Virus record (IMG/VR): IMGVR_UViG_3300021075_000004
Coordinates: 1 to 41,707 of that record
Origin: a virus
Strand: one strand, 5' to 3'
Length of the DNA: 41,707 bases
Shown here: piece after piece, positions 1 through 33,670 of the stretch
Layout: the number at the start of each line of letters is the position of its first letter
How positions within the stretch are numbered: the stretch's first letter is position 1
The notes under the pieces: generated by a model
Databases searched by the model: none
What the model saw: the letters and a program-made list of their open reading frames with translations, nothing else
Told to the model about the DNA's origin: nothing
Position numbers and translations under genes: made by a program

Positions 1-14
1 CCACCACCACCACC
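1..14. repeat. CCA-triplet terminal repeat, left copy
   Basis: The first 14 bases are CCA triplets, identical to the last 14 bases of the window. Merging the two restores one continuous Gly-rich reading frame, so the break is probably an assembly artefact of a circular or permuted genome, not a physical end. The true number of triplets is uncertain. Confidence 0.7.
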
Positions 15-3962: not shown

Positions 3963-3969
3963 AGCGACC

Positions 3970-5133
3970 TCACAGTAGAGTGACGACAGGAAGGCCCGCC
4001 TGAGCCTCTGATAGCGCGTATGAGGCGATGGATACCACGCGGGGTAGCGCAGATACTCTAGGTGCTGGGGCGAGCATGAGAAGCGCGACATATTTAGGCG
4101 TGATAGCCCAGAAGTAAGGGGCCGCTGTGACTTCTGCACTTGCCCTAGCGAGTCCCCACCCTTGGCCTTTGACGGAGGGGGCCGCCCCTAGATTAGCCAT
4201 AGGCACAACCGCATTGAGCGGGTTCGCCCTCAATCGTGGTCGGGCGGCTATCTTGGCGCGAGGAGTCAGGGCCCCCCAAGCGCGTGCGGTCATCCGGGGG
4301 GTGGGATAGAGCCGAGCGTAGAACCTAGTGATATGGAGAGGCCAATCGTACAGATACGGAGTAGCGCAAAGGTCGGCCTCGGCCTTGGCTGGTGCGAATA
4401 GCGCTGCACCCAATGACGGCGATGAGTCCAGAGCGGCCCTTACCGTGTCCCACGCGTGGGCCGACGAGACGACCTCTGGGGTAGCCCTCAGTCGCGCCGA
4501 GGCTGGCCCTGTAGCGGTGGCGACAAGCTCCAAGCGCGCGACTAGATTAGCGGCAGGTTGGGCCGACGTGAGCGCGGTGGCAGAAAGCTCGGGAGAAGCG
4601 GTAGGTGAAGCCTCGGGGTTGGCGGTCAGTACCTCGCTACGGTAAACCTCGAAGTAGTAGTCACTCGCGGTGTGGTATACCCAACCAGTCTCAGTCTGGG
4701 CTACTGCGGAGTTCCCACCGTGCGTGGTGTCTCCTCCGTGAATCTGCACTTTGTTTGAGCTGCTGCAACTCCCACAGGTGAAGACGATGCAATAGTGAGT
4801 GGACGCTTCCATCTCATACTGCTGCTCCCCAGAGAATGAGAACAGCACCTTGGTATCTGAGGTTGTGAGCGTGGATACGTCGAAGGCGTCACTCGTGGCA
4901 AGGCACGTGCCGGTAGGTTGACCTGTGCTTCCGAACGTCCCGCTCATCGCGTAGAGCTTCGCGTACCCAGACCCCGTAGGCGACCCCGACTTCTTCAGCC
5001 AGAAGTACACCTCCAACAGCTTCTGCCCGGCAGAGTCGGTAGTGAACGACTGCGAGAACCACTTGTAGGTATTCGTGCAGTCATTCCAAGAGGTCGTGAC
5101 TATGGTTGAGTTGCCGTCAACGAGGATTGCCAC
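3970..5133 (-). CDS. Distal tail / putative receptor-binding protein
   Basis: 387 residues, with a GTG start just after the stop of the upstream gene. Residues 1-170 are strand-rich and aromatic with several cysteines (CGSC motif), like the jelly-roll of carbohydrate-binding tail proteins (MAILVDGNSTIVTTSW, then WFSQSFTT...LLEVYFWL). Residues ~170-387 are strikingly rich in Ala, Pro and Arg with repeated ARLxATP/PRxxAxP phrases, low in complexity and of no recognised fold. The gene lies between small tail proteins and the hub protein. A role in host binding is inferred from position and the N-terminal pattern only. The weak ribosome site suggests translational coupling to the upstream gene. 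Confidence 0.55.
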   Translation of the reverse strand: MAILVDGNSTIVTTSWNDCTNTYKWFSQSFTTDSAGQKLLEVYFWLKKSGSPTGSGYAKLYAMSGTFGSTGQPTGTCLATSDAFDVSTLTTSDTKVLFSFSGEQQYEMEASTHYCIVFTCGSCSSSNKVQIHGGDTTHGGNSAVAQTETGWVYHTASDYYFEVYRSEVLTANPEASPTASPELSATALTSAQPAANLVARLELVATATGPASARLRATPEVVSSAHAWDTVRAALDSSPSLGAALFAPAKAEADLCATPYLYDWPLHITRFYARLYPTPRMTARAWGALTPRAKIAARPRLRANPLNAVVPMANLGAAPSVKGQGWGLARASAEVTAAPYFWAITPKYVALLMLAPAPRVSALPRVVSIASYALSEAQAGLPVVTLL

Positions 5134-5536: not shown

Positions 5537-5884
5537 TTAGATAGAACGGACTGTTTCGAGCTTATAGACGTACAGGCCGTCGAACGGGACGACCCTTGAC
5601 GATGACTTTATCGTGACTTGCTCGTCGGCACCATCGGGGTCAGTCACAGTGACCACCGCGTCCGAGTCGCAAAGGGTCGTCATATCCTCATCATCATCGG
5701 CGTTGAAGATACTCACCTCGTAGGAAGTCTCACGCACTCGGCTCCCAGAGTTCAGGACGCGAGGGTCTACCCTCCCTATTACTGGGTGGGCGACTACCTC
5801 CTTAACGACTTTCGGCTCCACGGGTGCAGACATTGTGACGTCGAGTTCGATGTCACCCTGCGTGAGTGTCCAGACTCTAGGCAC
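5537..5884 (-). CDS. Minor tail protein, hypothetical
   Basis: 115 residues. The GTG start at 5884 overlaps the end of the tape measure gene by 8 bases and has a strong GGAGGTGG ribosome site. The sequence is beta-rich with acidic stretches (FNADDDEDMTTLCDSD) and has no recognised family. Its place directly after the tape measure is where distal tail proteins usually lie, so a tail-tip role is likely but unproven. Confidence 0.5.
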   Translation of the reverse strand: MPRVWTLTQGDIELDVTMSAPVEPKVVKEVVAHPVIGRVDPRVLNSGSRVRETSYEVSIFNADDDEDMTTLCDSDAVVTVTDPDGADEQVTIKSSSRVVPFDGLYVYKLETVRSI

Positions 5885-8489
5885 GGGCCACCTCCACAGC
5901 GAGCATCTTGAACGCAGCGAGCACGTTGTTGTTTATGTTCTGAGCATCGGCAGGGGCAACGCTTCCGTTGAAGGTCATGGTAACCGCCCCACTCTGCACG
6001 GTAACCCCACTAGCCCCGCCAGAAGATGCCCCTACTAGGCCACCAGGGCCCGCGTAAGACAACGAAAGCGGCTGCATAGATACAGACGCGTCAAAGGCAG
6101 ACGAGACGAGAGAGGACGCGTTCCGCATCGCAGAGGTCGCGGCCCCTGCGCTCTTGTCGATACCGCCCGCCAGCCCGAGCATGAGATTCTTCCCGATGTC
6201 AGCGAACACCGCAGACGGGGACTTGATACCGAGGAGGTTCCTCAGCCAAGAGATAAGGCCCCTGAACAGGTTCGAGATTGACGACTTGAGGTTGTTCCAC
6301 TGGTTTATGAACCCCTGCTTTAGCCCATCGACAATCCGCTTGCCCGTGTCGGTCAGCCACGCTCCCGCACCCGCGACGGCACCCTTTATCGCCTCGGGCA
6401 GACCGACGCACCATGCAATCACCGAGGCGACCCCTTCTTGGAATCCCTTAACCGCTCCAGCCCAAGTATCAGCAGCCCACTTACTGATGGTGGACGCGAC
6501 CTCGGTTAGGTACGCTCCGATAGCGGGGCCGATACCAGAGATGAACTGCACGAAGGCGGCGGGAATCTCCTTGAGTATGGGCACGAACGCGTCCCAAGCC
6601 CCCTTTACCGCGTCCCACCCTGCGGTAAAGGCTCCAGACAGGGCACCCCAACCAGTCGTGAATACGCTATTGATTTGCTCCCAGGCGGTTATGAATGGAG
6701 CTGCGAGGTTCTTGGCTACCCCGTCGATAGCAGACTTGAGGCCCGCAGTATCGCCAGTGAATATCGCCCCGATTGCTTGCAGGATGATGAGGAGGCTACC
6801 TACTGCGGCGGTCTTTACGAACGCCCACATTTCCCCGAAGTTCTTGGCGATGGTGGGGCCTATGGCCTTAATCGCAGCTCCGAACCCCGTAGATATAGCA
6901 GCACCCACCCCCCCCAGCCACCCCATGACTTTCCCGCCCAGACCAGAGAAGAACTCGCCGATAGCTGGCCCAGCTTTGTCAATGAAGTCGAACACGGGCT
7001 GTAGTAGCTTGTTCCAGCCCTCCTGATACCCCGGAATCATCTGCAACAGCCCGTTGATAGCGACTCCCAAGATGGCCCCAAGCGCGATAGCGAGCCCAAT
7101 AGCGAGCGCGGGGATGCTCAGTACAAACCCACCGACAGCGGAGAGGGCAGACGCGATAGAGGCCCCTATCGAGGTTGACATCCCAGTACCCACCGCTGCG
7201 GTAGCGGCCTCTCCTGCGACGGTCGCCTCTACTCCGAACAAGGTCAGTTGCTCAACAGCGACCGCCGCGCCCGTTCCGACTGCGCCTGTTCCTGCTGCGG
7301 CGACGGTCGCCTCTGCTCCGAACAAGGTCAGTTGCCCAGCAGCGACCGCCGCGCCCGTTCCGACTACGCCTGTTCCTGCTGCGGCGACGGTCGCCTCTGC
7401 CCCGAGGACTCCCACCTCGGCGGCTGCGACACCTGCCCCAGTAGCAAGGGCCCCAGTTCCAGCAGCCGCAACAGTGGACGCCCCTCCTACACCAAGGAGG
7501 CCTGCGGCCCAAGTGCCGATACCTGCGAGCATCCCACCAGAGACGAACAGTTGAGAGGCCATATAGAGCGAGCCGAGGAACGACGTGGTTCCTCCTATCG
7601 CCTTGCCACCGTACTCGGCTACCTGAGCAATTCCGACGGCGGTAGTTGTGAGCTTAGGGTCTATCTCGTTGAGCTTGTCGATGATGCCAGCAAGCATCGT
7701 CGTCTTGAACGTCTCCAACGGGATGTTGGCGAGCCCAACCTTACGGGTGAAAGTCTCCATCGCTGCGGCGTTGTCCTTCTGGACCCCAGCGAACTTCTTT
7801 ATCTCATCGAGGTCGGCCTGAGACAGAACGCCGCCCGAGGCCTCAAGGTCGTCGCCTATCTTCTTGATGGCACCACTACCAGAACTCAGCACGGGGAGTA
7901 GGGCTTGCCAGTTGCGGCCCAAGAGCTTCGCGGCCATAGCATTAGCGACCGTCTTGTCAGTGGCCTTTGAGTAGTAGTCGGCGAAGTCGGCCAGCACGTC
8001 CATCATGTCTCGGTTTTTACCAGAGGCATCTTGGGTTGCTATGCCCATCTTCTTGAGGTCCTCGCTTTGACCAATGATTGCGCCACCGAGCCCCTTTAGC
8101 AGCATCCCCACGGTCTTACCCTCGATACCGAACCTCTGGAATACCGCTGTGAACTTTGAGGCCTCCTCGGCACCCATGCCCGTCATCCTCTGTAAGGCGA
8201 CGACCTCCTTACCAAAGGCCATCGTCTTGTCGGTCGCCCCGTCAAGGGCCTTACCGACAGCGAATCCAAACCCAGCCATCGCGGCCCCAGCGACAACCAT
8301 CCCGCCGCCTATCTGGGTCCCCGTGAGCCCGCCCGTCTTGCCTATCTGGTCTACCTTGGCGTCAGCGGCCTCAGCAGCCTTGCCGAACTTGTCTAGGTCA
8401 TCGGTTGCGGCCTTAGTGCCAGAAGTCCACGACCCGCCCTTCTTGATAGCGAGTTCGTAGGCCAGTGTTCCTAGATTCGTTTGTCCCAT
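5877..8489 (-). CDS. Tape measure protein
   Basis: 870 residues, the longest complete gene, directly after the tail chaperones, the usual place for the tape measure protein that sets tail length. The N-terminal ~300 residues contain helices with phage tape measure features (TAVFQRFGIE, LADFADYYSKA). The centre (~330-480) is Gly/Ala-rich and hydrophobic and contains a 28-residue tandem repeat with the phrase QLTLFG[AV]EATVA. Hydrophobic helices and Trp-rich stretches follow, and the C-terminal part has the common LLGIKSPSAVFADIG motif of tape measure proteins. It is short for a siphovirus, implying a tail of modest length. Confidence 0.9.
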   Translation of the reverse strand: MGQTNLGTLAYELAIKKGGSWTSGTKAATDDLDKFGKAAEAADAKVDQIGKTGGLTGTQIGGGMVVAGAAMAGFGFAVGKALDGATDKTMAFGKEVVALQRMTGMGAEEASKFTAVFQRFGIEGKTVGMLLKGLGGAIIGQSEDLKKMGIATQDASGKNRDMMDVLADFADYYSKATDKTVANAMAAKLLGRNWQALLPVLSSGSGAIKKIGDDLEASGGVLSQADLDEIKKFAGVQKDNAAAMETFTRKVGLANIPLETFKTTMLAGIIDKLNEIDPKLTTTAVGIAQVAEYGGKAIGGTTSFLGSLYMASQLFVSGGMLAGIGTWAAGLLGVGGASTVAAAGTGALATGAGVAAAEVGVLGAEATVAAAGTGVVGTGAAVAAGQLTLFGAEATVAAAGTGAVGTGAAVAVEQLTLFGVEATVAGEAATAAVGTGMSTSIGASIASALSAVGGFVLSIPALAIGLAIALGAILGVAINGLLQMIPGYQEGWNKLLQPVFDFIDKAGPAIGEFFSGLGGKVMGWLGGVGAAISTGFGAAIKAIGPTIAKNFGEMWAFVKTAAVGSLLIILQAIGAIFTGDTAGLKSAIDGVAKNLAAPFITAWEQINSVFTTGWGALSGAFTAGWDAVKGAWDAFVPILKEIPAAFVQFISGIGPAIGAYLTEVASTISKWAADTWAGAVKGFQEGVASVIAWCVGLPEAIKGAVAGAGAWLTDTGKRIVDGLKQGFINQWNNLKSSISNLFRGLISWLRNLLGIKSPSAVFADIGKNLMLGLAGGIDKSAGAATSAMRNASSLVSSAFDASVSMQPLSLSYAGPGGLVGASSGGASGVTVQSGAVTMTFNGSVAPADAQNINNNVLAAFKMLAVEVARA
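7217..7400 (-). repeat. 84-bp tandem repeat inside the tape measure gene
   Basis: Near-identical 84-base units begin near 7217 and 7301, with a partial third near 7385. They encode a 28-residue unit (QLTLFGAEATVA... plus a Gly/Ala-rich stretch). In-frame gain or loss of units would change tape measure length by whole steps. Confidence 0.8.
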
Positions 8490-13330: not shown

Positions 13331-14460
13331 CCTCCCATCAGGGTAGAAGTCAACCTTCGTGCTGACCTAGTGATAGTTGCGTAGGGGACGGTTACCGCGC
13401 CAGCGAACGCTGTCAGTTGCGGGTAGTAGGTGTTGTCATTTTGGGCTGGGTAGGTCGGGAAGTACCAATACGCAATTGGAGAAGTCTGGAGTCCCCGAAT
13501 GGTTGCCCCTGCATCGTTCGACCTACACTGGGCCGTCGTCAGCCCAGTGGCTTTCGCCTCTGTGTAGTTGACGGTGGTGTTGTAGTCGGTGTCCCAGTAG
13601 TTGTAGGTCATGGTGCCTGCGATGTAAGTCCCGCAGAATCCACGGCGCGGACCAGTCGAGCCGACCGTGCAGGCAGCGAAGCAGGCTGTGATGGTGCTGT
13701 GGTTGGCGCCGACGAAGCCACCTGAGGAGGAGCTGCTGCTGCTGCTGCTGCTAGTGACTGAGCAGGCGGTGATGGTGCCGCCGTTGTTATAGCCGACGAA
13801 GCCACCTGAGTAGCTGCCGCTGCTGCTGCTGCTGCTAGTGACTGAGCAGGCGGTGATGGTGCTGTAGTTGACGCCGACGAAGCCACCTGAGGAGGAGCTG
13901 CTGCTGCTGCTGCTGCTAGTGACTGAGCAGGCGGTGATGGTGCCGCCGTTGTTATAGCCGACGAAGCCACCTGAGGAGCCGCTGCTGCTGCTGCTGCAAT
14001 ACAGATGGTCTACATGGAGGTTACTGACAGTGGAGGTTGGGCCTAGTTCAGCGAACAGCCCGCCGTCGAACCAATAGCCACCTGCGAACGTCGCATTGCT
14101 GATGGTGTGACCATCGCCGTCGAACTTGAGGGTCAGGAGCGACTGGGAGTAGAAGCGTCCAGCGGGCGCTCCCTTCCCGTCCCAGTCGACGGGCTTATCC
14201 TCGTATGACGTGCGTCCAAGCGGCCAGAACACTCCCGCGCCTAGCCCGATGTTGGTAGACGAGAGGTCGAGGTTGGCGGTCAGCTTGTAGAAGTAGCCGT
14301 CATTGGTGCCGATGCCCAGCTCGCCCGTTGCCCAGTCAGACCACCCGGGTACAGCGACGTTCTGGTATAGCGCGGCGAAGTCAGCCTCGTTGTCGATGAG
14401 GCGAGGCGTGGATATGGTGCCGCCGTTCTGCCCAGCAGTGTTCCAGTTGGCGTATGCCAT
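13327..14460 (-). CDS. GLUG-motif repeat protein with polyserine linkers
   Basis: 377 residues. After a ~150-residue start (wall-less beta-helix style: FDGDGHTISNATFAGGYW, ELGPTSTVSNLHV) come four 27-28-residue repeats reading GGFVG-x2-N-x(2,3)-TITACSVT followed by runs of serine. This matches the GLUG motif (GGLVGYN-type) of secreted bacterial adhesins, which is expected to build a beta-helix or beta-roll. The repeats alternate A-B-A-B, and the two A copies are identical over more than 80 bases. The gene abuts the queC-like stop and is coupled to the next gene by ATGA. A virion surface adhesin is inferred. GLUG proteins are unusual in phage head operons. Confidence 0.65.
   Translation of the reverse strand: MAYANWNTAGQNGGTISTPRLIDNEADFAALYQNVAVPGWSDWATGELGIGTNDGYFYKLTANLDLSSTNIGLGAGVFWPLGRTSYEDKPVDWDGKGAPAGRFYSQSLLTLKFDGDGHTISNATFAGGYWFDGGLFAELGPTSTVSNLHVDHLYCSSSSSGSSGGFVGYNNGGTITACSVTSSSSSSSSSSGGFVGVNYSTITACSVTSSSSSSGSYSGGFVGYNNGGTITACSVTSSSSSSSSSSGGFVGANHSTITACFAACTVGSTGPRRGFCGTYIAGTMTYNYWDTDYNTTVNYTEAKATGLTTAQCRSNDAGATIRGLQTSPIAYWYFPTYPAQNDNTYYPQLTAFAGAVTVPYATITRSARRLTSTLMGG
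13711..13990 (-). repeat. Tandem GLUG repeats with (AGC)n serine microsatellites
   Basis: Unit starts recur at 13711, 13795, 13876 and 13960 (periods 84, 81 and 84). The units at 13711 and 13876 are identical over about 85 bases, each with seven AGC codons on the coding strand. This points to a recent 165-bp duplication and to serine runs that can vary in length in frame. Confidence 0.85.
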
Positions 14461-15084
14461 CTAGCTCAGACCCAACGCCACACGCTTCGTACACTTGCCG
14501 CATACGCCGCACGGGGTAGCCCAGTGACACGAGTAGGTATAGTCGAACTGCGACAGGTCTATATCGAACTGCGCGGATAGGACATCGTAACCGCACGGGT
14601 AGATGCCGACGAACGGCATGACGGCTACGGGAGCGTCCTCGCCCAGTCGGGTGTTCTTCGCCAACAGCACATTAAAGTCGTCCACGTAACCGACAGCCAC
14701 ATTGCCCTTGGTGCCCGAGTAGATGTACTCGGCACTGACCATACGGGCGTAGGACAGCGCGAGTGAGTGTGTGACCATCGTGACGTTGGCGGTGCCGTGG
14801 AAGTAGGCAGGCGATAGCTCCTGTATCCCGTCGTCATACGGGAACACGTTGCCCTCGTCGTCCTTCCAGTAGTTCGGCGTATAGCCGAAGTCCACCGTGA
14901 CCGCCTTGTGGTCAGCGCAGAATAGCCGCGCAGTCTCAGCAGCCGCCACTCCACAGGGAACGGAGTTCACGGCCCCTACGTCAATGAACAGCGAGTGAAC
15001 GACCATCGTCGGGTCTTTGGCGAGAATTGCCGCGACCATCGCGGAATCAACGCCACCTGCGTTAGCGAGCACGACGACTGGCAT
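14461..15084 (-). CDS. queC: QueC-like 7-cyano-7-deazaguanine synthase
   Basis: 207 residues from the ATG at 15084 (upstream TTG codon less likely). QueC is an ATP-dependent enzyme that turns 7-carboxy-7-deazaguanine into preQ0. Two hallmarks are visible: an N-terminal PP-loop ATPase motif at residues 9-14 (AGGVDS; usual form SGGxDS), and a C-terminal zinc site with C186, C192, C195 and C198 in the order SCHWATPCGVCGKC. Length fits the family (~220). It overlaps the QueT-like transporter gene by 23 bases, so the two are co-translated. The Ser-to-Ala change in the PP-loop is odd and may alter activity. No QueD, QueE, FolE or DpdA is recognised in the window. Confidence 0.75.
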   Translation of the reverse strand: MPVVVLANAGGVDSAMVAAILAKDPTMVVHSLFIDVGAVNSVPCGVAAAETARLFCADHKAVTVDFGYTPNYWKDDEGNVFPYDDGIQELSPAYFHGTANVTMVTHSLALSYARMVSAEYIYSGTKGNVAVGYVDDFNVLLAKNTRLGEDAPVAVMPFVGIYPCGYDVLSAQFDIDLSQFDYTYSCHWATPCGVCGKCTKRVALGLS

Positions 15085-15628
15085 ATTCCCACGCTCCAAC
15101 CAGCGGATAACCCGCCATGTAGATGACCATGCTCGTCAGCACCTTAAACCCGATGAGACCCTTGACCAGTGGCAGGAACGCAGCACCCGATACGAGCACC
15201 GCCATACCTGCGTTGGTGAACGTCACGATGAGCGCCGAGAGCAGTCCGTAGATTGCGAGCAGGCACAAGTCCTTCGCCACACTGCGACCGATGCGCCGCG
15301 AGATTGTCCACACACCCAGCCCGACGGCAGTATTCAGAGCAGGTGTCAGAGCCGCACCCCACGGATTACCTGCGTCCATCGCTATCGAGCCGAAGAAGGT
15401 ACCGATGGGTGCAAGCGGTGTCACGAGTGAGAACGCTCGCAGGACGTTGGCGATGCGAAGTGTCGAGCCGAACGCCATCCCTGCGAAAGATGACTTAGCC
15501 AGCACGGGCGAGTAAACGGTCATCAAGACATACGCCGCAGCGAAGCCGATGGTGATAGCGACCGCCTTGGCGATGGCTATGACGCGCTCCCTCGTGATGG
15601 AACTGGTTGCTGTGGTGGCTTGCATCAT
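15062..15628 (-). CDS. queT: QueT-like preQ0/preQ1 (queuosine precursor) transporter
   Basis: 188 residues with about five hydrophobic segments (around 22-40, 60-85, 92-112, 127-150 and 155-178). The phrase TLRIANVLRAFSLVTPLAPIG, followed by a Gly/Ala segment, and the C-terminal YMAGYPLVGAWE parallel the QueT family (…FRVSEALTVLP…IPG…; …LGYPLL…), membrane S-components that take up queuosine precursors. The neighbouring queC-like gene strongly supports this reading. The ribosome site is GGAAGG. It directly follows the capsid gene hairpin. Assignment is by family resemblance and context, not proven. Confidence 0.65.
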   Translation of the reverse strand: MMQATTATSSITRERVIAIAKAVAITIGFAAAYVLMTVYSPVLAKSSFAGMAFGSTLRIANVLRAFSLVTPLAPIGTFFGSIAMDAGNPWGAALTPALNTAVGLGVWTISRRIGRSVAKDLCLLAIYGLLSALIVTFTNAGMAVLVSGAAFLPLVKGLIGFKVLTSMVIYMAGYPLVGAWEYASRRAR

Positions 15629-15682: not shown

Positions 15683-16669
15683 CTAGGCGTCGTCTGCGAC
15701 CAGCAGGTGCTTGAACTGGACAACACGAATGGCCTTCTCGTCATAAACACGAGTCCAGTTCGCGTCATCGCCAAGCTCCGCACGCGTGGGAGACTCAGCA
15801 TCGGCGACTGCCGCGCTGTTCCACTTGATACCGCGCGGGTGCAGAATCATCGTCTTGCGGTTGATGAGGTAGTCAACGCCAGAGCCCAGCTTCGGCTCGC
15901 GGTGCGTCTCGGTCGGGACGAACCCCACGGGATTGCCGTTTCCAAGAGCAACCGCGTTGGGTCCGAAGATGTATGACGTGTAGACGTCCCCAGCAACGGG
16001 GGCCCCGTCGTCAATGATGACGCGCTTGCCCATGTAGGTCTTGATTGGTGCGCCACCCTCGCTCGTGCGAACCGTCTCGATGAGGTCCTGCTTCTCCAGC
16101 AAGGTCTCAGTCGCGGAGTGCATGAGGATACCCGAGAGCTGGTCCTTGAGGTCGCCCAAGAGCTGGCAAGCGTCAATGAACGCGCCACCACTCCACACCG
16201 CTGCGGCTCCGTCGTCGCCAGAGATGTCAGCCACGAGGCCGCTCATTGACGAGTCATCGAACACGCCAGAGAGGACTGAGAGAAGCTCCTTCTGGAGTTC
16301 GCGAGTCCAGTACGCAGCTACGAGATTGGCGATGATGTCTACAGGCTTGTCGCCAGACAGAGCAGCAGACAGGTCGGTGGACGACCACATCTTGGCGCGA
16401 CGGAAGATGACCGCAACGTCCTTGCTCGCGGCAATCTTCTCGGCGGTCAGGGGTGCGCCGCCTTCCGTGATGTTCTCAGCGTCCCCAGAGAGGTCGCCCC
16501 AGAACGGCATGTTAATCGTCTGAGCAGCCATCGAAGCGAACTGGTTGAACTGCCCGTTATTCTCGATGATGCCAGACTGCACGAGGGCCGACAGCGCGAG
16601 CGTGCGCTGCACGACATAGGGAGTGAATACTTCGGGGACGATAACGTCCGAGAGGGTTGTGCCAGCCAT
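15683..16669 (-). CDS. Major capsid protein
   Basis: 328 residues, directly after the scaffold gene. Features typical of HK97-fold coat proteins are an N-terminal helix with VIVPEVFTPYVVQRTLALSALVQSG, a beta-rich P-domain-like segment (ENITEGGAPLTAEKI...VAVIFRRAKMWSSTDLS), a helical spine (ANLVAAYWTRELQKELLSVLSG), and a late block with HSATETLLEKQDLI and TYMGKRVIIDDGAPV. Gene order (portal, MuF, scaffold, capsid, connectors) and the strong hairpin that follows agree with a highly expressed coat protein. Confidence 0.9.
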   Translation of the reverse strand: MAGTTLSDVIVPEVFTPYVVQRTLALSALVQSGIIENNGQFNQFASMAAQTINMPFWGDLSGDAENITEGGAPLTAEKIAASKDVAVIFRRAKMWSSTDLSAALSGDKPVDIIANLVAAYWTRELQKELLSVLSGVFDDSSMSGLVADISGDDGAAAVWSGGAFIDACQLLGDLKDQLSGILMHSATETLLEKQDLIETVRTSEGGAPIKTYMGKRVIIDDGAPVAGDVYTSYIFGPNAVALGNGNPVGFVPTETHREPKLGSGVDYLINRKTMILHPRGIKWNSAAVADAESPTRAELGDDANWTRVYDEKAIRVVQFKHLLVADDA

Positions 16670-16684
16670 GATAAGCCAGCCTTT

Positions 16685-17335
16685 CTAGGCTTTCGCCTGT
16701 GCCATGAGCTGAGTCGCAAGCTCGGGGTTTTCCTTGTAGATACGGCTTTGGTCATCAAGGGAGAAGGTGTCGGCCTTCCACGGGTTCTTCCCCGCGACTG
16801 ACTTCCCACCCTCGCCCGTGCGTTGTCCGACTAGGATGGCTCCGTTCCCATCGTCCTTCGAGTCGGTGTCGAACAGGAAAGCGTTGTCCTTCTTTAGTGC
16901 GGCAATCTGCTCGTCTAGACCCACCACGGTACCGTCATCCTTGACGACTACCTTATCCAAGTCCAGCAGAGGGATGACCGTCTTGTCGTTCCGTGCGCGT
17001 TCTTTCGTCAAGGCAGAGCGGATAGCGAAGTCGGTCGCTTGGCTACGAAGGGCGGCGGCGTGCTTCTCAGCGGCTTCCTTGTTGGCTGTCTCCAGCTCGT
17101 TTAGCTTGGCGGTCAGTTCCGCCGAGTCCTTAGTCGCGGCTTGGAGTTCCACGAGCTGTGCATCGCGCTCTTTGAGCTGGGATGCTAGGCCCTTCTTCTC
17201 CTCGTTCACGGCGTCGAACTTCTCTTTCGGGAACCACGAACCATCCGATACGATTGCAATTTCGGTCTTGTCGTCCAGCTTCTCGGCAACCTGCTCGAAT
17301 AGCTCCGCACCTAGCACGTCCTTGAGACTCGGCAT
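16685..17335 (-). CDS. Scaffolding protein (phage GP20-like)
   Basis: 216 residues, preceded by AAAGGA. The centre (~45-100) is a long coiled coil (KKGLASQLKERDAQLVELQAATK...), followed by FAIRSALTKERARNDKTVIPLLDLDKV and the GLDEQIAALKKDNAFLF motif. This is the typical make-up of GP20/minor-structural scaffold proteins that guide procapsid assembly. It is 15 bases before the major capsid gene. Confidence 0.9.
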   Translation of the reverse strand: MPSLKDVLGAELFEQVAEKLDDKTEIAIVSDGSWFPKEKFDAVNEEKKGLASQLKERDAQLVELQAATKDSAELTAKLNELETANKEAAEKHAAALRSQATDFAIRSALTKERARNDKTVIPLLDLDKVVVKDDGTVVGLDEQIAALKKDNAFLFDTDSKDDGNGAILVGQRTGEGGKSVAGKNPWKADTFSLDDQSRIYKENPELATQLMAQAKA

Positions 17336-19434: not shown

Positions 19435-19671
19435 CTAGGCTGGCTTCGCCCAGGTTCCGCCGTTGCGCTCGATAGTGTTCCGCGCCTCGGCCTCGTCAAT
19501 CTTGACCACCTCTGGCGAGCCTGAGAATACTGTAATGAGCGAGTTGTCCTGTACCCACGCCTTCGTGGGGTAGTCGTATCGGTAGAGCAGCTCACCAATG
19601 AAGATAACGGACCTTGTCACCCCGCGATTAACGCTTGTGTGGCTCGACAGGTAGTAGCCGTCAATTGCCAT
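19435..19671 (-). CDS. Small hypothetical protein downstream of MuF-RelA/SpoT gene; candidate immunity protein
   Basis: 78 residues from the ATG at 19671, which follows GGGAGGTGAGAGCG. The first half is strand-rich (SVIFIGELLYRYDYPTKAWVQDNSLITVF) and the end is a helix plus loop (KIDEAEARNTIERNGGTWAKPA). No family is recognised. It begins 53 bases after the MuF-toxin-like gene and has its own TATACT promoter overlapping that gene's end. Immunity proteins often lie in this place, so neutralising the RelA/SpoT-like domain is a hypothesis from context only. Confidence 0.6.
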   Translation of the reverse strand: MAIDGYYLSSHTSVNRGVTRSVIFIGELLYRYDYPTKAWVQDNSLITVFSGSPEVVKIDEAEARNTIERNGGTWAKPA

Positions 19672-19705: not shown

Positions 19706-19734
19706 AGTATACTCCTACGCCGTCTACTGTACCA
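19706..19734 (-). promoter_or_regulatory. Promoter between MuF gene and the 78-residue gene
   Basis: -10 TATACT at 19711-19706, with only a weak -35 candidate TGGTAC 17 bases upstream, inside the end of the MuF gene. The TATACTGATAC sequence matches the early promoter family; the leader hairpin is absent. Confidence 0.55.
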
Positions 19735-21115
19735 GTCGCTCCACGCCTCGCGGAGTTGGAATCCTGTTGGCCGTAGCTTTCATCTCAGCGAGTATGGCTC
19801 GCTGTACCGACTGCGGAGTGGCAGGGTTCTGGAAGTCCTTGTACATGTCGTGGTTGAAGAACTCCTTGATATCGAAGCTATCCCTCGTGTGGAATTGCAT
19901 CTCGAACTTGTACCCACCAGAAGTAACGAAGTTCGTATTAATCCCACGGTACGGGACGTCCGTATCCTTTAGCGAGTTTCGGAAGTCACTCATGCTGTAG
20001 CCTTTGGCTTCCATCTCGGCACGGATAGCCTCAAACCCGCTGGTGAAGTCTCCCTCTGGAAGGATTCCCGTATAGCGCACGGCGTCCTTTACCTGCGATG
20101 CGGCCTCTGTCCGACTGATTCCGTTGTCCTTCGCCTCTCGCAGTATCTTGTCCGAAAGCGAGCCCTCCTCTTTCAGTCGGTAGTCTAGGCCCTCCATTTC
20201 CCCGCCTTGGCTACCGAACAGGCCCACAACGTCCCGCGTTATGTCAGGCTCTTGGGCCTCAGCGATGGCCCTAACCTCAGCAGCAGCGGCGTCGGCCTCC
20301 TCCTGAGCTTGTACCTCCTCGGGCGTTAGCTCGGCGACTGGCTCCTCGACTGGCAGCGGGGGGGCATAGGTGCATCGGCAGTTCGGGTGTATCGGTAGCG
20401 GCTCCTCGTCACCGATGGCGTAAAGCGTCTGGTCTAGGTCGGCGCACTCATCGCACGTCTCGCCATCATCCGTAGCGATGAACTGTAGCTCCTCTACCCC
20501 CAGCTCTTTGTACATATCGTTTTGGGTCTGGTTGATAACGAACATGCCCTCGGTGCGTACCAGACGTTCGGCGTCCCTGTATCCAGAGTCGAACTTACTG
20601 GCTACCTTTCCTGCCATCTCGGTGAACGAGTCCCCCGTAACCATCCCACGCAGCATCGTTTCCTTGACTCCTTGGGCAAGTGCGTCCGTGTTATCCCAGA
20701 TGCGGTCGGAGTAGTTCTTCCCGCTCCATGGGTAGTCGAGAATCTTGTCGATTCTGTCCTTTGCCAGCCCACCGAACTCCACTCCGAGTGACTTCCCTAG
20801 TGCCACTTGGGTATCAGCAGCGACCGCCGCCAGAGTCGCACGAGTGGCGGCTTCACTAGCTACCCCCAGCTCTTTCGTGGCTTCCTTTAGGGCCGCGTCC
20901 AATGACGTGAGCCTACCCACTTGGGCAAGGTCGGAGGAAGATAGCGCACCGTCTTTGGCGAACCTCGCGTACAGGGTAGCGAGTTCTGACACTACGGAGT
21001 CGCTTGCCTTCTGGTACTCAGCGGCTTGGGCCTTTAGTCGGTCCTCAATACCCTTGAACACGGACTGCTGCCCTTGGAGTATCCTCGCCGCCATGTACCC
21101 GTCTTTACCTGCCAT
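19724..21115 (-). CDS. MuF minor head protein fused to a RelA/SpoT-like (toxSAS-like) domain
   Basis: 463 residues, after the portal gene. Residues ~100-250 are a MuF/head morphogenesis domain, including LVRTEGMFVINQTQNDMY and the metal-type cluster C221-x2-C224 with HPNCRC at 243-248. An acidic Glu/Ala linker (255-290) leads to residues ~295-463 with the hallmarks of a RelA/SpoT nucleotide pyrophosphotransferase fold: DYRLKEEGSLSDKI (311-324), VKDAVRYTG (342-350), PYRGINTNF (388-396) and FEMQFHTRDSF (404-414). Family members make (p)ppGpp or ppApp, or pyrophosphorylate tRNA. MuF proteins with C-terminal toxin domains are known phage polymorphic toxins that can ride in the virion. Activity and target are not shown by sequence. 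Confidence 0.8.
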   Translation of the reverse strand: MAGKDGYMAARILQGQQSVFKGIEDRLKAQAAEYQKASDSVVSELATLYARFAKDGALSSSDLAQVGRLTSLDAALKEATKELGVASEAATRATLAAVAADTQVALGKSLGVEFGGLAKDRIDKILDYPWSGKNYSDRIWDNTDALAQGVKETMLRGMVTGDSFTEMAGKVASKFDSGYRDAERLVRTEGMFVINQTQNDMYKELGVEELQFIATDDGETCDECADLDQTLYAIGDEEPLPIHPNCRCTYAPPLPVEEPVAELTPEEVQAQEEADAAAAEVRAIAEAQEPDITRDVVGLFGSQGGEMEGLDYRLKEEGSLSDKILREAKDNGISRTEAASQVKDAVRYTGILPEGDFTSGFEAIRAEMEAKGYSMSDFRNSLKDTDVPYRGINTNFVTSGGYKFEMQFHTRDSFDIKEFFNHDMYKDFQNPATPQSVQRAILAEMKATANRIPTPRGVERLVQ

Positions 21116-21124
21116 CGTTGCCCC

Positions 21125-22654
21125 TTATACAGCAGCGTCGATAGCGTGGATAGCATCCCCACTAGACCCGGCCGCCTCACCAGAGCCCTGAGACTGGTCG
21201 CCCATCGGGTCAGGAGTCGGAGGCACATTGGAACGCTCGGCGAAGGGCTGGATTGCAGCCTGCGTAGTGCCCTCCTCCTCTATCCTTAGCAGCTCGGCAT
21301 CAACATCGTCCACCCACGGCGAGTGCTCTAGCGAGGTCCTCAGTGAGTGAGTAGCAGTCGCATCGGTGACACCCTTTATAGCCTCAGCAGTGTTCTGGAT
21401 TACCGTTCGCGTGAAGGTGACGTCGGCAGTCTTAGGGTCATACTTCCCAGTCCCGAGCACCTCACACGACTTGGCAACGAACCAGAACAGCTCACGGAAT
21501 CCCGCCTTGAACTTGCGCTCCATAGCGTCGGCTTTGAGCTTGAGCCCCGAGTACATGAAGTCGAGTGCAACGCCAGACGGGTTACTTCCAAGGGAGTCCT
21601 TCGACAGGTCAACGCTCTGTGAGAATTGGTAGAAGTCCTGTTTGAGCCGCTCTAGGTGAGCCTCCGCAGCAGTCGGGTTGATATCGGCACTCAGAGTCTC
21701 CACCCCTCCGTCGTCATCGACAGTGATAGCGCGGTAGTAGCGAAGGTCAGCCATGAACTGCTCTAGGCTCGTGCCGCCGTAGTTACGCAGGACGAAGATG
21801 AGCTGCTGGACCTCTTTAAGCGTATTGCTCATATCCGAGACTGTGCCGTCGTACTCGTCGATTATGTCCTTGACGAACACGAGGTCAGGCAGCTCTTGGC
21901 TGTTGTTCTTGAACGGAACGAACGGGACGTGCCCCCACCCATACATTGCCCCATCGGGAGTCTCGAAGTGGCCTATCGGATTCCCCAGAGGATTGCGCTC
22001 AATGTCGAGCACGAGGGAACCGCCGTACCTCTCGAAATACTGGACAGTCGTAGGGGTCCACAATTCGACCTTCTGGATAAGGACGGGGCTCATGCCTTGG
22101 TACTCAGTGACGTAGTAGTGACGTATGACCCCGTCGAGCCTAGTGTGCTGCTCATCAGCCCAGAGAGGAATGACCTGCTCACTCGGGACGTTGATGAACT
22201 CCAGTTGGGTCACACCGTCAATCGAGGCCAAGTACGGGTGCAGCCACCCAATCCCCGTGTTGCTGCTCTCAGTCCCCACGTCGATAAGAAGGTCAGAGAA
22301 CGACTCGTCAAGGACCTCCTGTATTGCATCCTTGAACGCACCATCCTCAGACGAGTAGGTGGGGGCCGTGCCGAGCAGGTACGAGCACTTCTCGTCTACG
22401 GTCATCTTCATGTACGGATGTGCGACTCGAATGTTCACCTTATCGGCATCGAGCGTCACAGTCCCGTTCACATACTTGGTCTGGATTCGACTCTTGACCG
22501 CGTTGTCGGCTCGATAGTAGGCCTTCCCAGCAAGCATTAGCTCCCTCTGGGTGCATACATCCCAATCATCCACGAACGTCTGCACGATGAGCGTGTCGTC
22601 CATCATCGTAGAGTCGAAGATTGCCTTACTGATTCCAACCAAGTCGAGGAACAT
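21125..22654 (-). CDS. Portal protein (SPP1 gp6-like)
   Basis: 509 residues with ribosome site AAGGGG. It contains a helical N-terminus, the clip/stem-type region (FVPFKNNSQELPDLVFVKDIIDEYDGTVSDMSNTL), and LSKDSLGSNPSGVALDFMYSGLKLKADAMERKF, a typical SPP1-gp6-type portal phrase. The acidic, low-complexity tail follows. It forms the dodecameric DNA entry channel. It lies 9 bases after the large terminase stop and just before the MuF gene. Confidence 0.93.
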   Translation of the reverse strand: MFLDLVGISKAIFDSTMMDDTLIVQTFVDDWDVCTQRELMLAGKAYYRADNAVKSRIQTKYVNGTVTLDADKVNIRVAHPYMKMTVDEKCSYLLGTAPTYSSEDGAFKDAIQEVLDESFSDLLIDVGTESSNTGIGWLHPYLASIDGVTQLEFINVPSEQVIPLWADEQHTRLDGVIRHYYVTEYQGMSPVLIQKVELWTPTTVQYFERYGGSLVLDIERNPLGNPIGHFETPDGAMYGWGHVPFVPFKNNSQELPDLVFVKDIIDEYDGTVSDMSNTLKEVQQLIFVLRNYGGTSLEQFMADLRYYRAITVDDDGGVETLSADINPTAAEAHLERLKQDFYQFSQSVDLSKDSLGSNPSGVALDFMYSGLKLKADAMERKFKAGFRELFWFVAKSCEVLGTGKYDPKTADVTFTRTVIQNTAEAIKGVTDATATHSLRTSLEHSPWVDDVDAELLRIEEEGTTQAAIQPFAERSNVPPTPDPMGDQSQGSGEAAGSSGDAIHAIDAAV

Positions 22655-22663
22655 GGCGACCCC

Positions 22664-23902
22664 TTACCTCAAGAGTGAAACGGGCGACGCGACGATAGTG
22701 TTAACGAAGTAGCGAGTGGCGTCCATTGCATGGTCGCTCTGCTTGAGCGGCGCGTCCTCGCCTCGCTCGAAGGCTTTGTCACTCCACACATAGCTGTGAA
22801 ACTCCTTAATGGTGTTGGTGCAGCTAGCGTCGAACAGCAGCATACCAGTCGTGAGGGCAGTAGCGGTATTGCGGATGCCGACGGCGACCGCGTTCTTGCC
22901 TTTGCGGACGTGGAAGCGTCGACGCTTACGGACGGCGGCGATGAACGATGTGGCGTTCGGGTCGATAATGACGTCCTGGATATTGAGGCTCCCAGCGAAC
23001 TCCTCCAGGTCGTCGCAATACTCCTCATCGGTCTTCTGCCGCCCGACCTCGCGGCCGCCGTAGTAATACTCCTTCTCGCACGCCCAGACGCCTCCCGCCT
23101 GCTCGCCCCAGAGCAGGAACACACAAGGGTTCTGGGTGCCGTAGTCGCAGGAGATGTAGTGCTTGCCGCCGCTCGTGGGGATACCCCTCATGACGTGGCG
23201 CCGCTCGTCGAACATATCGAAGATGACTCCCTCTGCCTGAACCCACTTGCCCTTTATGTAGCGCTCGTAGAACATGCCCGAGAACATGCGGCAGTAGCGC
23301 TCAACCACCGCCGCCGCCAGGGTCAGGTTGTCGCCCATGGTGAAGTGGAAGTAGGCTATCCGCTTCTCCTCGGCCTTGTCGATAAAGTCGGTCTTGAAGT
23401 AGTGGAACGGGCCGCGAGGGTTGCAGTTCATCCAGATAAGCGCGCCCTCGACCGAGCAGCGCCCTATCATCTGCTCCACAAAGGACTTCGGAAACAGGGC
23501 TACCTCGTCCGCTAAGGCTCCCGCCGCCGTCATGCCTTGGAGCGTGTCCTGGGCGGCCTCGGAGCTAGCGCCGAACAGGTAGAACGAGTTGGTGCCGACG
23601 CGGATACAGGGCACGCCGCTGCGGTTGTACTCCCATCCCCACCCCCAGGAGTCCAGCATCCCCAGGAGCGGGGTGATGACGTTGCGTTTGAGCGACCCTA
23701 CGGTCTTGCCTGCGAGGATGAAGTCCTTGCCTTCATGGTTCTCTTGGGCCCACTGGAGGAAGCCTGCCGTCATAGCGATGGTCTTGCCCGCGCGGATAGA
23801 GCCGTCGGCGACGACCATGTCCATCCCCGCCGTCGGGGCGCCCTCCTTGTACCAGTTCATGAGCTGCATCTGCTTCTTACTGAATGGCTGGAAGGCGAAC
23901 AT
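22664..23902 (-). CDS. terL: Terminase large subunit
   Basis: 412 residues from the ATG at 23902 (TGATG overlap with the small subunit). The ATPase domain shows Walker A GSIRAGKT at 34-41 and a Walker B-like ALADEV at ~129-134. The nuclease domain shows CDYGTQNP, VIIDPNATSF and SDHAMDATRYF, the acidic motifs of PBSX/phage terminases. It cuts and pumps DNA into the procapsid. Codon use here looks richer in GCC/CGC than in the portal gene that follows. Confidence 0.95.
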   Translation of the reverse strand: MFAFQPFSKKQMQLMNWYKEGAPTAGMDMVVADGSIRAGKTIAMTAGFLQWAQENHEGKDFILAGKTVGSLKRNVITPLLGMLDSWGWGWEYNRSGVPCIRVGTNSFYLFGASSEAAQDTLQGMTAAGALADEVALFPKSFVEQMIGRCSVEGALIWMNCNPRGPFHYFKTDFIDKAEEKRIAYFHFTMGDNLTLAAAVVERYCRMFSGMFYERYIKGKWVQAEGVIFDMFDERRHVMRGIPTSGGKHYISCDYGTQNPCVFLLWGEQAGGVWACEKEYYYGGREVGRQKTDEEYCDDLEEFAGSLNIQDVIIDPNATSFIAAVRKRRRFHVRKGKNAVAVGIRNTATALTTGMLLFDASCTNTIKEFHSYVWSDKAFERGEDAPLKQSDHAMDATRYFVNTIVASPVSLLR

Positions 23903-24521: not shown

Positions 24522-25862
24522 TTAGGCCCGAGCGCAGGTTTCGGGGGTCGGCCACTCCGTACCATCGGGAAGCCTCCAGACTTTGTCGCGCCGTTTGTCG
24601 GCGTAGAATGTGTGGGTCAGGTCTAGGTGGGGGAAGGGCCCGCACCCTATCAGATGACGCAGGCCCAGCTTGTCCAGTCGGGCTCGGAACCTCTCCATCG
24701 CCTCGGGCTTGTTCGGCCACGTTGGCACCTTGCCGAGCTGGATGACCTCCTCGGGGGTGCAGCGGTTGAAGGCTGTCCTCCATGCGGACGCGGAGGCGGC
24801 GCGGGCGGGGAGGAGCTTGACCCGCTTGTTCTTGCCCGCCATCAATCGGAACGTCTCCTTGCTGTCCCAGTAGGCGGGGTCGACGGGCCAGTTCTGGGAG
24901 GGGGTGTGTGGCTGGGGGTCGAGGTAGGTGCATTTGATACTGAGGAAGGGGCTGAACTCGGTCTGTATCGGGAGTACCTCGTCGCACCACCAGCGGACGT
25001 CATCCATAGACCACCCAGGGTAGCCGACGATGAAGAACAGTTCGATGACCTGGCGCTGCTGGGCCGTGCGGAGGATGACCTCGCGTATCGCGTCGTCGGA
25101 TATGGGCTTGCCCATCTGGCGCCGCGAATCCTCTGTCCAGCACTCGATACCCGCGTGGAGGGAGCGGGACTTGTAGCGCAGGGGGTCATCCAGGTAGTCG
25201 GTGATACGGATGCTCTGGGAGGAGATGCACTTGCTCTGCCTCACGGGGTCGGCGTCGTTCGACACGATGGAGAGCAGGCCCTTGGGAATCGCCTCGACGT
25301 GCGACACCACCCTCTCTAGGAGGGCCTCGGGCGCCTTGGTGTAGGGCATCGCCCAGCTCGTCGCGCAGAAGGCGCACTTACCCTTACACCCTCGCCCACC
25401 CAGGTAGTAGTAGCTCTGCCCCCCGCCCGCCGTACGCATCAGGGGCGCGTGGGCGTAGGGCACCTTGTAGGACGGCTCGACCCTCGTGTTGGTCTTGTAT
25501 CGCTCCATGGTCATTACCTCGGGGCGGGCCATCGCGGCGTCCATGCCCTTCTCGCCCCAGGTCTGGATGAACTCCCACCCTTCGCCCGTCACCACGGCAT
25601 CGGCCCAGGCGAGGAGCGGGATGGGGTTGTAGCACGCGAACCCGCCGCAGATGATAGGTCGGCCGTTCGCCTCTTTGGCCGCGGGCACGAGCGCCTTGTA
25701 GACGTCGTCGACGTCACAGATGGACAGCCAGAGCACGTCCGCGTCGGCGCGGTTCTCTACTAGGGTGACGCCGTACTCGATACAGAGCTGTCGGATAGTG
25801 GCGATGGTATACATCGCGGTAGAGCGCTCGCCCCCTTGTAGGTGAATCTTGAGCTTCTTCAC
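24522..25862 (-). CDS. Radical-SAM enzyme with B12-binding-like N-terminal domain
   Basis: 446 residues. C159, C163 and C166 form the CxxxCxxC iron-sulfur motif (GRGCKGKCAFCATSW) that binds S-adenosylmethionine. Residues 1-~110 look like the Rossmann-type cobalamin-binding part of B12-radical-SAM proteins (ADADVLWLSICD, RPIICGGFACY, DAVVTGEGWEFI), though the DxHxxG motif for base-off B12 is not seen. The C-terminal half includes GIECWTEDSRRQMGKPI and ELFFIVGYPGWSMDDV, typical radical-SAM barrel phrases. The substrate is unknown; DNA, protein or tRNA modification are all possible. It lies between a ParB-like region and the terminases. It is not a QueE: too long and of different layout. Confidence 0.8.
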   Translation of the reverse strand: MKKLKIHLQGGERSTAMYTIATIRQLCIEYGVTLVENRADADVLWLSICDVDDVYKALVPAAKEANGRPIICGGFACYNPIPLLAWADAVVTGEGWEFIQTWGEKGMDAAMARPEVMTMERYKTNTRVEPSYKVPYAHAPLMRTAGGGQSYYYLGGRGCKGKCAFCATSWAMPYTKAPEALLERVVSHVEAIPKGLLSIVSNDADPVRQSKCISSQSIRITDYLDDPLRYKSRSLHAGIECWTEDSRRQMGKPISDDAIREVILRTAQQRQVIELFFIVGYPGWSMDDVRWWCDEVLPIQTEFSPFLSIKCTYLDPQPHTPSQNWPVDPAYWDSKETFRLMAGKNKRVKLLPARAASASAWRTAFNRCTPEEVIQLGKVPTWPNKPEAMERFRARLDKLGLRHLIGCGPFPHLDLTHTFYADKRRDKVWRLPDGTEWPTPETCARA

Positions 25863-32785: not shown

Positions 32786-33670
32786 CTACGCGGCCTGGGC
32801 GACTGGTTCGGCGTCCGTGTACTCCACCGCCCGCCCCAGAATGTGGTCGGCGGCCTTGCCCGCGGCGCTGGCGGCGCGAATCGCCAGGTGGGTGTCGGCT
32901 GCAATCTTCGTGCGCCAGGAGTCGATGTAGGAGGCGCTCCGCTCGATGGTGGTTTCCAGGCCTGCCTCGGAGGCCAGGTACGCGGCGCCGAACTCTGCGA
33001 TTAGCTCCTCCTCGCCGTACTGGTAGCTCCCGAAGTGGTCGAGCTTGGTCACTCCGTCCCGTGCCAGGCGGCCCGCCGAGCCCGTGCTGTGGGTCATCTC
33101 GTGGAAGCGGGTCGAGTAGTAGGCAGGCGCGTCGTGGAAGGCGCTCATGGCGGGTAGCTCGATTATGTCCAGCTTCGGAATGTAGTGGGCCGAATCGCCG
33201 CGGTGGAACGTCTCGGGCCCGTCCGCGTACCCCTGGCAGATGGCCTCGGCTGCCTCGATGGGGTCTTGGCTCCCGTTGCGCTCGGGCGCCTCCAGCCCGT
33301 CGGCCTGGTCGAGGTTGAATACGGGGATGCTGCGGAGGAGATAGAAGGCGCTCCGCGACTCCTGGCCGTCCGCGTCGACCTCCCGCTTGACTACGGGCTT
33401 GGCGATGATGATGTGGGTGGCGTGCTCGCCCTTGCGAATCTGGCCGCCCGCCTTGCGCGCCTGGCCGTAGGTAAGCCAGTACGGGGTCGAGTGCCCTGTC
33501 ATCTCCAGTAGTGCGGGGTTGATTCCGCGGTAGCGGTGGCCGCTGATTAGGTTCTGGTGGCAATCCCCGGGCTTGTCCCAGGGCGCCGTGCCCTCGTCGA
33601 GCTTCGCCAGAATCGCGTTGGTCACCTCCTGGTAGATATCCTTGGGTGCCTTGTGCGCTGACTTCCTCAT
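32786..33670 (-). CDS. ArdC-like antirestriction protein with zincin domain
   Basis: 294 residues. The N-terminal ~120 residues match the ArdC ssDNA-binding domain (DIYQEVTNAILAKLDEGTAPWDKP, GHRYRGINPALL, YWLTYGQARKAGGQIRKGEHA). The C-terminal part is a zincin-like metallopeptidase with HEMTH at 190-194 and a downstream EELIAEFGAAYL that can give the third ligand. ArdC proteins protect incoming DNA from restriction on plasmids and phages. A GTGA-type overlap of 4 bases joins it to the next upstream gene. Fits early expression on DNA entry. Confidence 0.88.
   Translation of the reverse strand: MRKSAHKAPKDIYQEVTNAILAKLDEGTAPWDKPGDCHQNLISGHRYRGINPALLEMTGHSTPYWLTYGQARKAGGQIRKGEHATHIIIAKPVVKREVDADGQESRSAFYLLRSIPVFNLDQADGLEAPERNGSQDPIEAAEAICQGYADGPETFHRGDSAHYIPKLDIIELPAMSAFHDAPAYYSTRFHEMTHSTGSAGRLARDGVTKLDHFGSYQYGEEELIAEFGAAYLASEAGLETTIERSASYIDSWRTKIAADTHLAIRAASAAGKAADHILGRAVEYTDAEPVAQAA

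What the first reader, a model, noticed from the sequence alone, without database searches (positions are those of the whole stretch)
19724..21115. MuF head protein fused to a RelA/SpoT-like toxin domain
The C-terminal 170 residues show RelA/SpoT synthetase-like hallmarks (YRLK...SLSDK, KDAVRYTG, YRGINT, FEMQFHT) after an acidic linker behind a MuF domain. MuF-toxin fusions are known as phage polymorphic toxins, and RelA/SpoT-fold toxins (toxSAS) stop growth by alarmone synthesis or tRNA pyrophosphorylation. A capsid-bound version could be delivered with DNA to shut host metabolism or exclude rivals.
Basis: partly seen in the sequence, partly recalled or inferred. Interest (0 to 1): 0.8.

Follow-up and report, generated by a model that had tools for sequence, protein, structure and literature searches.

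The report
Phage capsid protein with alarmone-synthetase toxin
A minor capsid protein of this phage ends in an enzyme domain of the kind that poisons bacteria by making the nucleotide (p)ppApp, and the next gene looks like its matching immunity protein; this is a new, distant member of a toxin family (Apk2) described in 2023-2025.

Summary
ORF 19724-21115(-), 463 aa, is a MuF (SPP1 gp7-like) minor head protein, sitting between portal and scaffold/major capsid genes, with a C-terminal small-alarmone-synthetase (SYNTH) domain (about residues 289-461). AlphaFold2 (pLDDT 89) matches the Streptomyces exported alarmone synthetase 8VX3 (TM 0.82-0.86 for three of its four chains; Z 20.3), well above other RelA/SpoT-fold proteins. 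Catalytic positions are conserved across 66 distinct relatives. The domain is 31-37% identical to phage MuF toxins of the Apk2 family; Apk2 domains from S. pneumoniae, Mannheimia and Pasteurella prophages have been tested, and two of the three are shown to make (p)ppApp. It carries the Apk signature RYT / GxN / [YF]H. New here: the next gene (19435-19671, 78 aa) is an IapK-type immunity protein. A profile of 31 proteins from the same position in other loci, built without the window, finds it alone among 954 ORFs (E 2.5e-5). The hydrolase Aph1 is absent from this incomplete contig. So this is an ordinary new member of a known kind: MuF toxin Apk2 with IapK. Delivery with phage DNA remains a published hypothesis, untested here. 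Product specificity cannot be read from sequence.

The parts
19724..21115 (-). muf-apk2: minor head (MuF/SPP1 gp7-like) protein with C-terminal alarmone-synthetase toxin domain, 463 aa
20366..20671 (-). MuF domain, residues 149-250
   Evidence: PF04233 E 8.9e-13; TIGR01641 E 2.7e-18
20261..20365 (-). acidic Glu/Ala-rich linker, residues about 251-285
   Evidence: sequence shown directly
19727..20260 (-). SYNTH (small alarmone synthetase) toxin domain, residues 286-463; catalytic Asp344, Arg347, Tyr389, Asn393, Glu405, Gln407
19435..19671 (-). IapK-type immunity protein, 78 aa, ATG at 19671 preceded by GGGAGG; starts 52 bp after the toxin stop codon
   Evidence: profile of 31 positional homologues built without the window: sole significant hit among 954 ORFs, E 2.5e-5, 20.5 bits; further relatives at this position in Coriobacteriaceae; AlphaFold pLDDT 87; sequence context
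21125..22654 (-). SPP1-type portal protein (context)
   Evidence: PF05133 E 8.8e-84
22664..23902 (-). terminase large subunit (context)
   Evidence: PF03237, PHROG 2
16685..17335 (-). scaffolding protein (context)
   Evidence: PF06810 E 1.6e-36
15683..16669 (-). major capsid protein, Gp13-like (context)
   Evidence: PF20036, phrog_247

Best explanation
This is an Apk2-type MuF polymorphic toxin with its cognate immunity gene. The N-terminal MuF domain makes the protein a minor component of the phage head (inferred from family and gene position). The C-terminal domain has the small-alarmone-synthetase fold with an intact active site (shown by sequence and model) and most likely transfers pyrophosphate from ATP to the 3'-OH of ATP/ADP/AMP, making (p)ppApp and draining ATP (inferred from characterised relatives). 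The 78-aa protein encoded next to it most likely binds the toxin and blocks its active site, protecting the producing cell (homology shown; mechanism inferred from IapK). If, as published work proposes, the protein leaves the head with the DNA, the enzyme would halt or kill a recipient lacking IapK; this step is hypothesis only.
For: MuF and syntenic portal/TerL/scaffold/capsid genes. C-terminal domain: 8VX3 by sequence E 5.5e-10; AlphaFold pLDDT 89, TM 0.82-0.86 to chains A-C of 8VX3, Z 20.3 over 176 residues. 31-37% identity over at least 96% of the domain to MuF proteins of S. pneumoniae, Mannheimia, Pasteurella and Aggregatibacter phages; Apk2 domains from prophages of the first three are toxic in E. 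coli, and those of S. pneumoniae and M. haemolytica make (p)ppApp only (PMC12226406). Among 66 distinct relatives, at the columns that could be read: K315, K323, R347, G391, N393, E405, Q407, H409 invariant and D344 in 63 of 64. Apk signature RYT/GxN/[YF]H present. IapK-type gene immediately downstream. Polymorphic-toxin modularity: Coriobacteriia matches to the N-terminal part include 270-271-aa MuF proteins without a toxin and MuF proteins with CdiA_C toxins, with matches ending near residue 250-255.
Against: No assay. The domain sits on a long branch (1.71 changes per column). At the basic position before N380, which is K in 53 of 66 relatives, it has R379. SaEAS shares the same signature and makes (p)ppGpp too, so the product is not fixed by sequence. 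The second immunity protein (Aph1), present in most characterised Apk2 phages, is absent from this contig, though the contig is incomplete and other IapK-only loci exist. IapK similarity is modest (20.5 bits).
Confidence: 0.82

Rival explanations
1. Same protein and delivery, but the enzyme is promiscuous or GTP-preferring and makes (p)ppGpp as well as, or instead of, (p)ppApp, like SaEAS or VpEAS.
For: The best solved match is SaEAS, which makes both (PMC12691689) and shares RYT/GLN/QFHT. Substituting syn motifs did not switch specificity in Apk2, so the motifs alone do not determine the product. The hydrolase Aph1, specific for (p)ppApp, is absent here.
Against: In the tree the window groups with MuF/Apk2 relatives (Collinsella and viral contigs, 95/83), two of which carry Aph1, rather than with SaEAS (97/85 clade elsewhere); the deep split is weak.
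Confidence: 0.25
2. The domain pyrophosphorylates tRNA 3' ends (FaRel2/CapRel-type toxSAS) and stops translation.
For: CapRel and FaRel2 have the same overall fold.
Against: They match much worse (CapRel Z 11.0; FaRel2 Z 6.7) than SaEAS (Z 20.3). The domain matches the Apk signature and the characterised relatives act on nucleotides.
Confidence: 0.06
3. The C-terminal extension is a non-toxic, decayed or structural domain in this phage.
For: R379 instead of the usual K, long branch. A relative in Pasteurella phage Pmp2 has lost the catalytic Asp, so decay occurs.
Against: All catalytic positions intact, full-length frame, high-confidence fold, and a maintained immunity-type gene next door.
Confidence: 0.07

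Closest known systems
Apk2 MuF polymorphic toxins (S. pneumoniae SPNA45, M. haemolytica, P. multocida, B. caccae prophages)
   Same: MuF N-terminus, SYNTH C-terminus with RYT/GxN/[YF]H motifs, IapK-type gene directly downstream, position between portal and scaffold/capsid genes
   Different: 31-37% identical toxin domain; no Aph1 hydrolase gene in this contig; R instead of K at residue 379; apparent actinobacterial affinity (nearest by tree path is Collinsella)
Exported alarmone synthetase SaEAS (8VX3), Streptomyces albidoflavus
   Same: Closest solved fold; same active-site residues
   Different: Secreted by signal peptide, no immunity gene, makes both (p)ppApp and (p)ppGpp
Apk1/Tas1 (6OX6), T6SS effector
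   Same: Fold; (p)ppApp-type toxin domain
   Different: PAAR N-terminus, T6SS delivery; much lower similarity (Z 12.0)
CapRel / FaRel2 toxSAS (tRNA pyrophosphokinases)
   Same: RelA/SpoT synthetase fold
   Different: Toxin-antitoxin or defence genes, weaker structural match, no MuF

Membership tests
Apk2 (MuF + adenosine 3'-pyrophosphokinase) | N-terminal MuF domain in the phage head gene cluster | tested here: met
   PF04233 and TIGR01641; neighbouring portal, TerL, scaffold, capsid
Apk2 (MuF + adenosine 3'-pyrophosphokinase) | C-terminal SYNTH fold with complete syn motifs and Apk signature RYT/GxN/[YF]H | tested here: met
Apk2 (MuF + adenosine 3'-pyrophosphokinase) | iapK immunity gene immediately downstream | tested here: met
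   78-aa ORF 19435-19671, E 2.5e-5 to a profile built without it; sequence homology only
Apk2 (MuF + adenosine 3'-pyrophosphokinase) | aph1 (p)ppApp hydrolase gene downstream (usual, not universal) | tested here: not met
   no HD_4 or Aph1-profile hit in the window; also not found in S. cristatus L101, Collinsella L091, Thermotalea L093, Lachnospiraceae L105/L109/L113, Aaphi23 L005, so not treated as defining
Apk2 (MuF + adenosine 3'-pyrophosphokinase) | exclusive (p)ppApp synthesis from ATP | not testable with these tools
   needs biochemistry
MuF polymorphic toxins | same N-terminal domain joined to alternative toxin domains | tested here: met
   Coriobacteriia MuF relatives with CdiA_C domains or no toxin domain
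MuF polymorphic toxins | encoded by a temperate phage | tested here: inconclusive
   no integrase or resolvase found, but the contig is truncated at its left end
RelA_SpoT (Pfam PF04607) | match to the curated model | tested here: not met
   no match at E <= 1; the fold is nevertheless of this superfamily

The most novel reading that the evidence does not exclude
A MuF alarmone-synthetase toxin carried by a virulent (integrase-less) actinobacterial phage with only a binding-type immunity protein, using the enzyme as an early host-takeover or rival-exclusion factor injected from the capsid, possibly with a different product spectrum; a published survey found MuF toxins only in temperate phages.
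Probability: 0.08. Interest if true: 0.5.

Novelty: new member of a known kind. Interest (0 to 1): 0.25.

Why it matters
It extends Apk2 MuF toxins to a divergent phage lineage. It also shows that the IapK immunity gene is the near-constant partner of this toxin domain, including outside phages, while the hydrolase Aph1 is optional. The IapK profile recovers a very divergent immunity family that Pfam lacks and gives a handle for finding toxin-immunity pairs. The open question for all MuF toxins, whether they travel in the virion, is unchanged.

Tried and rejected
Single-sequence pattern search with the whole protein found only one distant MuF relative. Searches for the 78-aa ORF alone in viral contigs and phages gave nothing, and in plasmids two insignificant hits. 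The first IapK profile, from six close phages, did not reach it (E 23); only the broader 31-locus profile did. Pfam and a PDB profile search gave no family for IapK: the WD40/Kelch hits show no significant single stretch and look like chance. Fold search of the IapK model found no convincing solved relative (best Z 4.9; no Foldseek hit under E 0.85). An Aph1/HD hydrolase was searched three ways and not found. PADLOC gave no hit for the toxin or the 78-aa protein. Rfam found nothing in the window.

Full report
OBSERVATION. The ORF at 19724-21115 on the minus strand is real, 463 aa, downstream of TerL (22664-23902) and an SPP1-type portal (21125-22654) and upstream of scaffold (16685-17335) and major capsid (15683-16669) genes. 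Residues 149-250 are a MuF domain (PF04233 E 8.9e-13; TIGR01641 E 2.7e-18). After an acidic Glu/Ala-rich linker, residues 289-461 match the Streptomyces albidoflavus exported alarmone synthetase (PDB 8VX3) by sequence alone (E 5.5e-10). A profile from 21 relatives without the window finds the ORF at 171.6 bits; 200 shuffles reach 7.8 at most. Pfam's RelA_SpoT model stays silent.

STRUCTURE. AlphaFold2 on alignment A3 gives pLDDT 89, pTM 0.81. Foldseek puts 8VX3 first (E 4.4e-12; TM 0.82-0.86 for chains A-C, 0.73 for chain D), then Tas1/Apk1 and B. subtilis/S. aureus small alarmone synthetases. VIA-align gives Z 20.3 over 176 residues for 8VX3 against 12.6 for the next entry; CapRel scores 11.0 and FaRel2 6.7.

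ACTIVE SITE. Among 66 distinct relatives, at the positions where a residue could be read, K315, K323, R347, G391, N393, E405, Q407 and H409 are invariant, and D344 (equivalent to D121 of SaEAS, whose change to Ala inactivates it) is kept in 63 of 64. S319, Y348, T349, N380, Y389 and T410 are kept in nearly all. The window has R379 where most have K. The motif set DAVRYT / YRGINT / EMQFHT is the Apk signature (RYT, GxN, [YF]H; PMC12226406); SaEAS shares it and makes both alarmones, so the signature does not fix the product.

RELATIVES. The domain is 31-37% identical to MuF proteins of S. pneumoniae, Pasteurellaceae and S. dysgalactiae phages; 130 viral contigs (80 fetched) and 28 bacterial genome contigs encode relatives. 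In a tree the window falls with Collinsella L091 and viral contigs L013, L084, L026 (95/83), on a long branch. Of 67 genomes of the family of the Collinsella genome, three carry toxin-domain proteins (L117, L118, L119); a search of 348 genomes of the class adds one more MuF-synthetase protein (L121). Other MuF proteins of that class end in CdiA_C toxins or have no extension, with similarity stopping near window residue 250-255: this is the modularity expected of polymorphic toxins. GC (60.6%) and these relatives suggest, but do not prove, an actinobacterial (Coriobacteriia-like) host; TerL and capsid are closest to phages of Firmicutes.

IMMUNITY. Five of six reference phage loci fetched carry iapK (about 70 aa) and aph1 (about 138 aa) right after the toxin; Aaphi23 carries iapK only. 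In the window no HD hydrolase is found. The ORF 19435-19671 starts 52 bp after the toxin's stop with a good ribosome site. I took the first ORF downstream of the synthetase domain in 31 loci, chosen by position, built a profile without the window, and searched all 954 six-frame ORFs of the window: this ORF is the only significant hit (E 2.5e-5, 20.5 bits; its best shuffle of 20 scores 7.9). The same profile picks L118 and L119, not in the seed, at the same position. Left-out seeds score 8-68 bits, so 20 bits is within the family's range. Its model (pLDDT 87) has no convincing solved relative. Aph1 is also not found in several other loci with IapK, so one-tier immunity is common.

MECHANISM. 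Shown by computation: MuF head protein, alarmone-synthetase fold, intact active site, IapK-type neighbour. Inferred from characterised relatives: (p)ppApp synthesis with ATP drain, toxicity, IapK blocking the active site (PMC12226406, PMC12691689). Hypothesis only: packaging in the head and delivery with DNA, proposed by Jamet et al. 2017 (PMC5576092), who also listed RelA-like MuF toxins. The physiological role of the whole family is unknown.

LIFESTYLE. No integrase or resolvase is found, but the contig is cut through a large Ig-repeat-like ORF at its left end, so this is not evidence of a virulent phage.

VERDICT. A correct finding of a known kind: a new, divergent Apk2 MuF toxin with IapK.

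Noticed in passing
L006 (Pasteurella phage Pmp2), ORF 3-1436, motif ETVRGVIRYTA: Natural loss of the catalytic Asp of syn2 (Asp to Gly) in an otherwise intact MuF toxin that still has iapK and aph1 downstream: apparently an inactivated toxin with retained immunity.
   Followed up: partly
L107, L108, L098, L112, L114: IapK-type immunity genes also follow synthetase domains in Acidobacteriota, Melainabacteria and Actinomycetota contigs, so this immunity family is broader than the MuF context in which it was described; Pfam has no model for it.
   Followed up: partly
L119 (genome of the Collinsella family), ORF 790-2145: The same toxin domain joined to a different phage head protein (Pfam VG15) with both iapK-like and aph1 genes downstream.
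   Followed up: partly
L122, L123, L127: Coriobacteriia MuF proteins with CdiA_C-type toxin domains instead of the alarmone synthetase.
   Followed up: partly
window 14461-15084, 15062-15628, 24522-25862: A QueC-like protein, a multi-span membrane protein beside it and a radical SAM protein near the terminase: possible 7-deazaguanine/queuosine-related genes in the phage.
   Followed up: no
window 3-4139 (-): Open frame of at least 1379 aa with Ig-like repeats running off the left end; the contig is therefore incomplete.
   Followed up: no
window 13708-13997 and 7216-7405: 84-bp in-phase tandem repeats inside predicted structural genes (one in the 870-aa ORF 5877-8489).
   Followed up: no
window 32786-33670: ArdC-type anti-restriction protein with zincin-like metallopeptidase domain.
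   Followed up: no
L102 and L103 (Brenneria, Phaseolibacter): Long XopAD-like proteins carry two synthetase domains in tandem.
   Followed up: no
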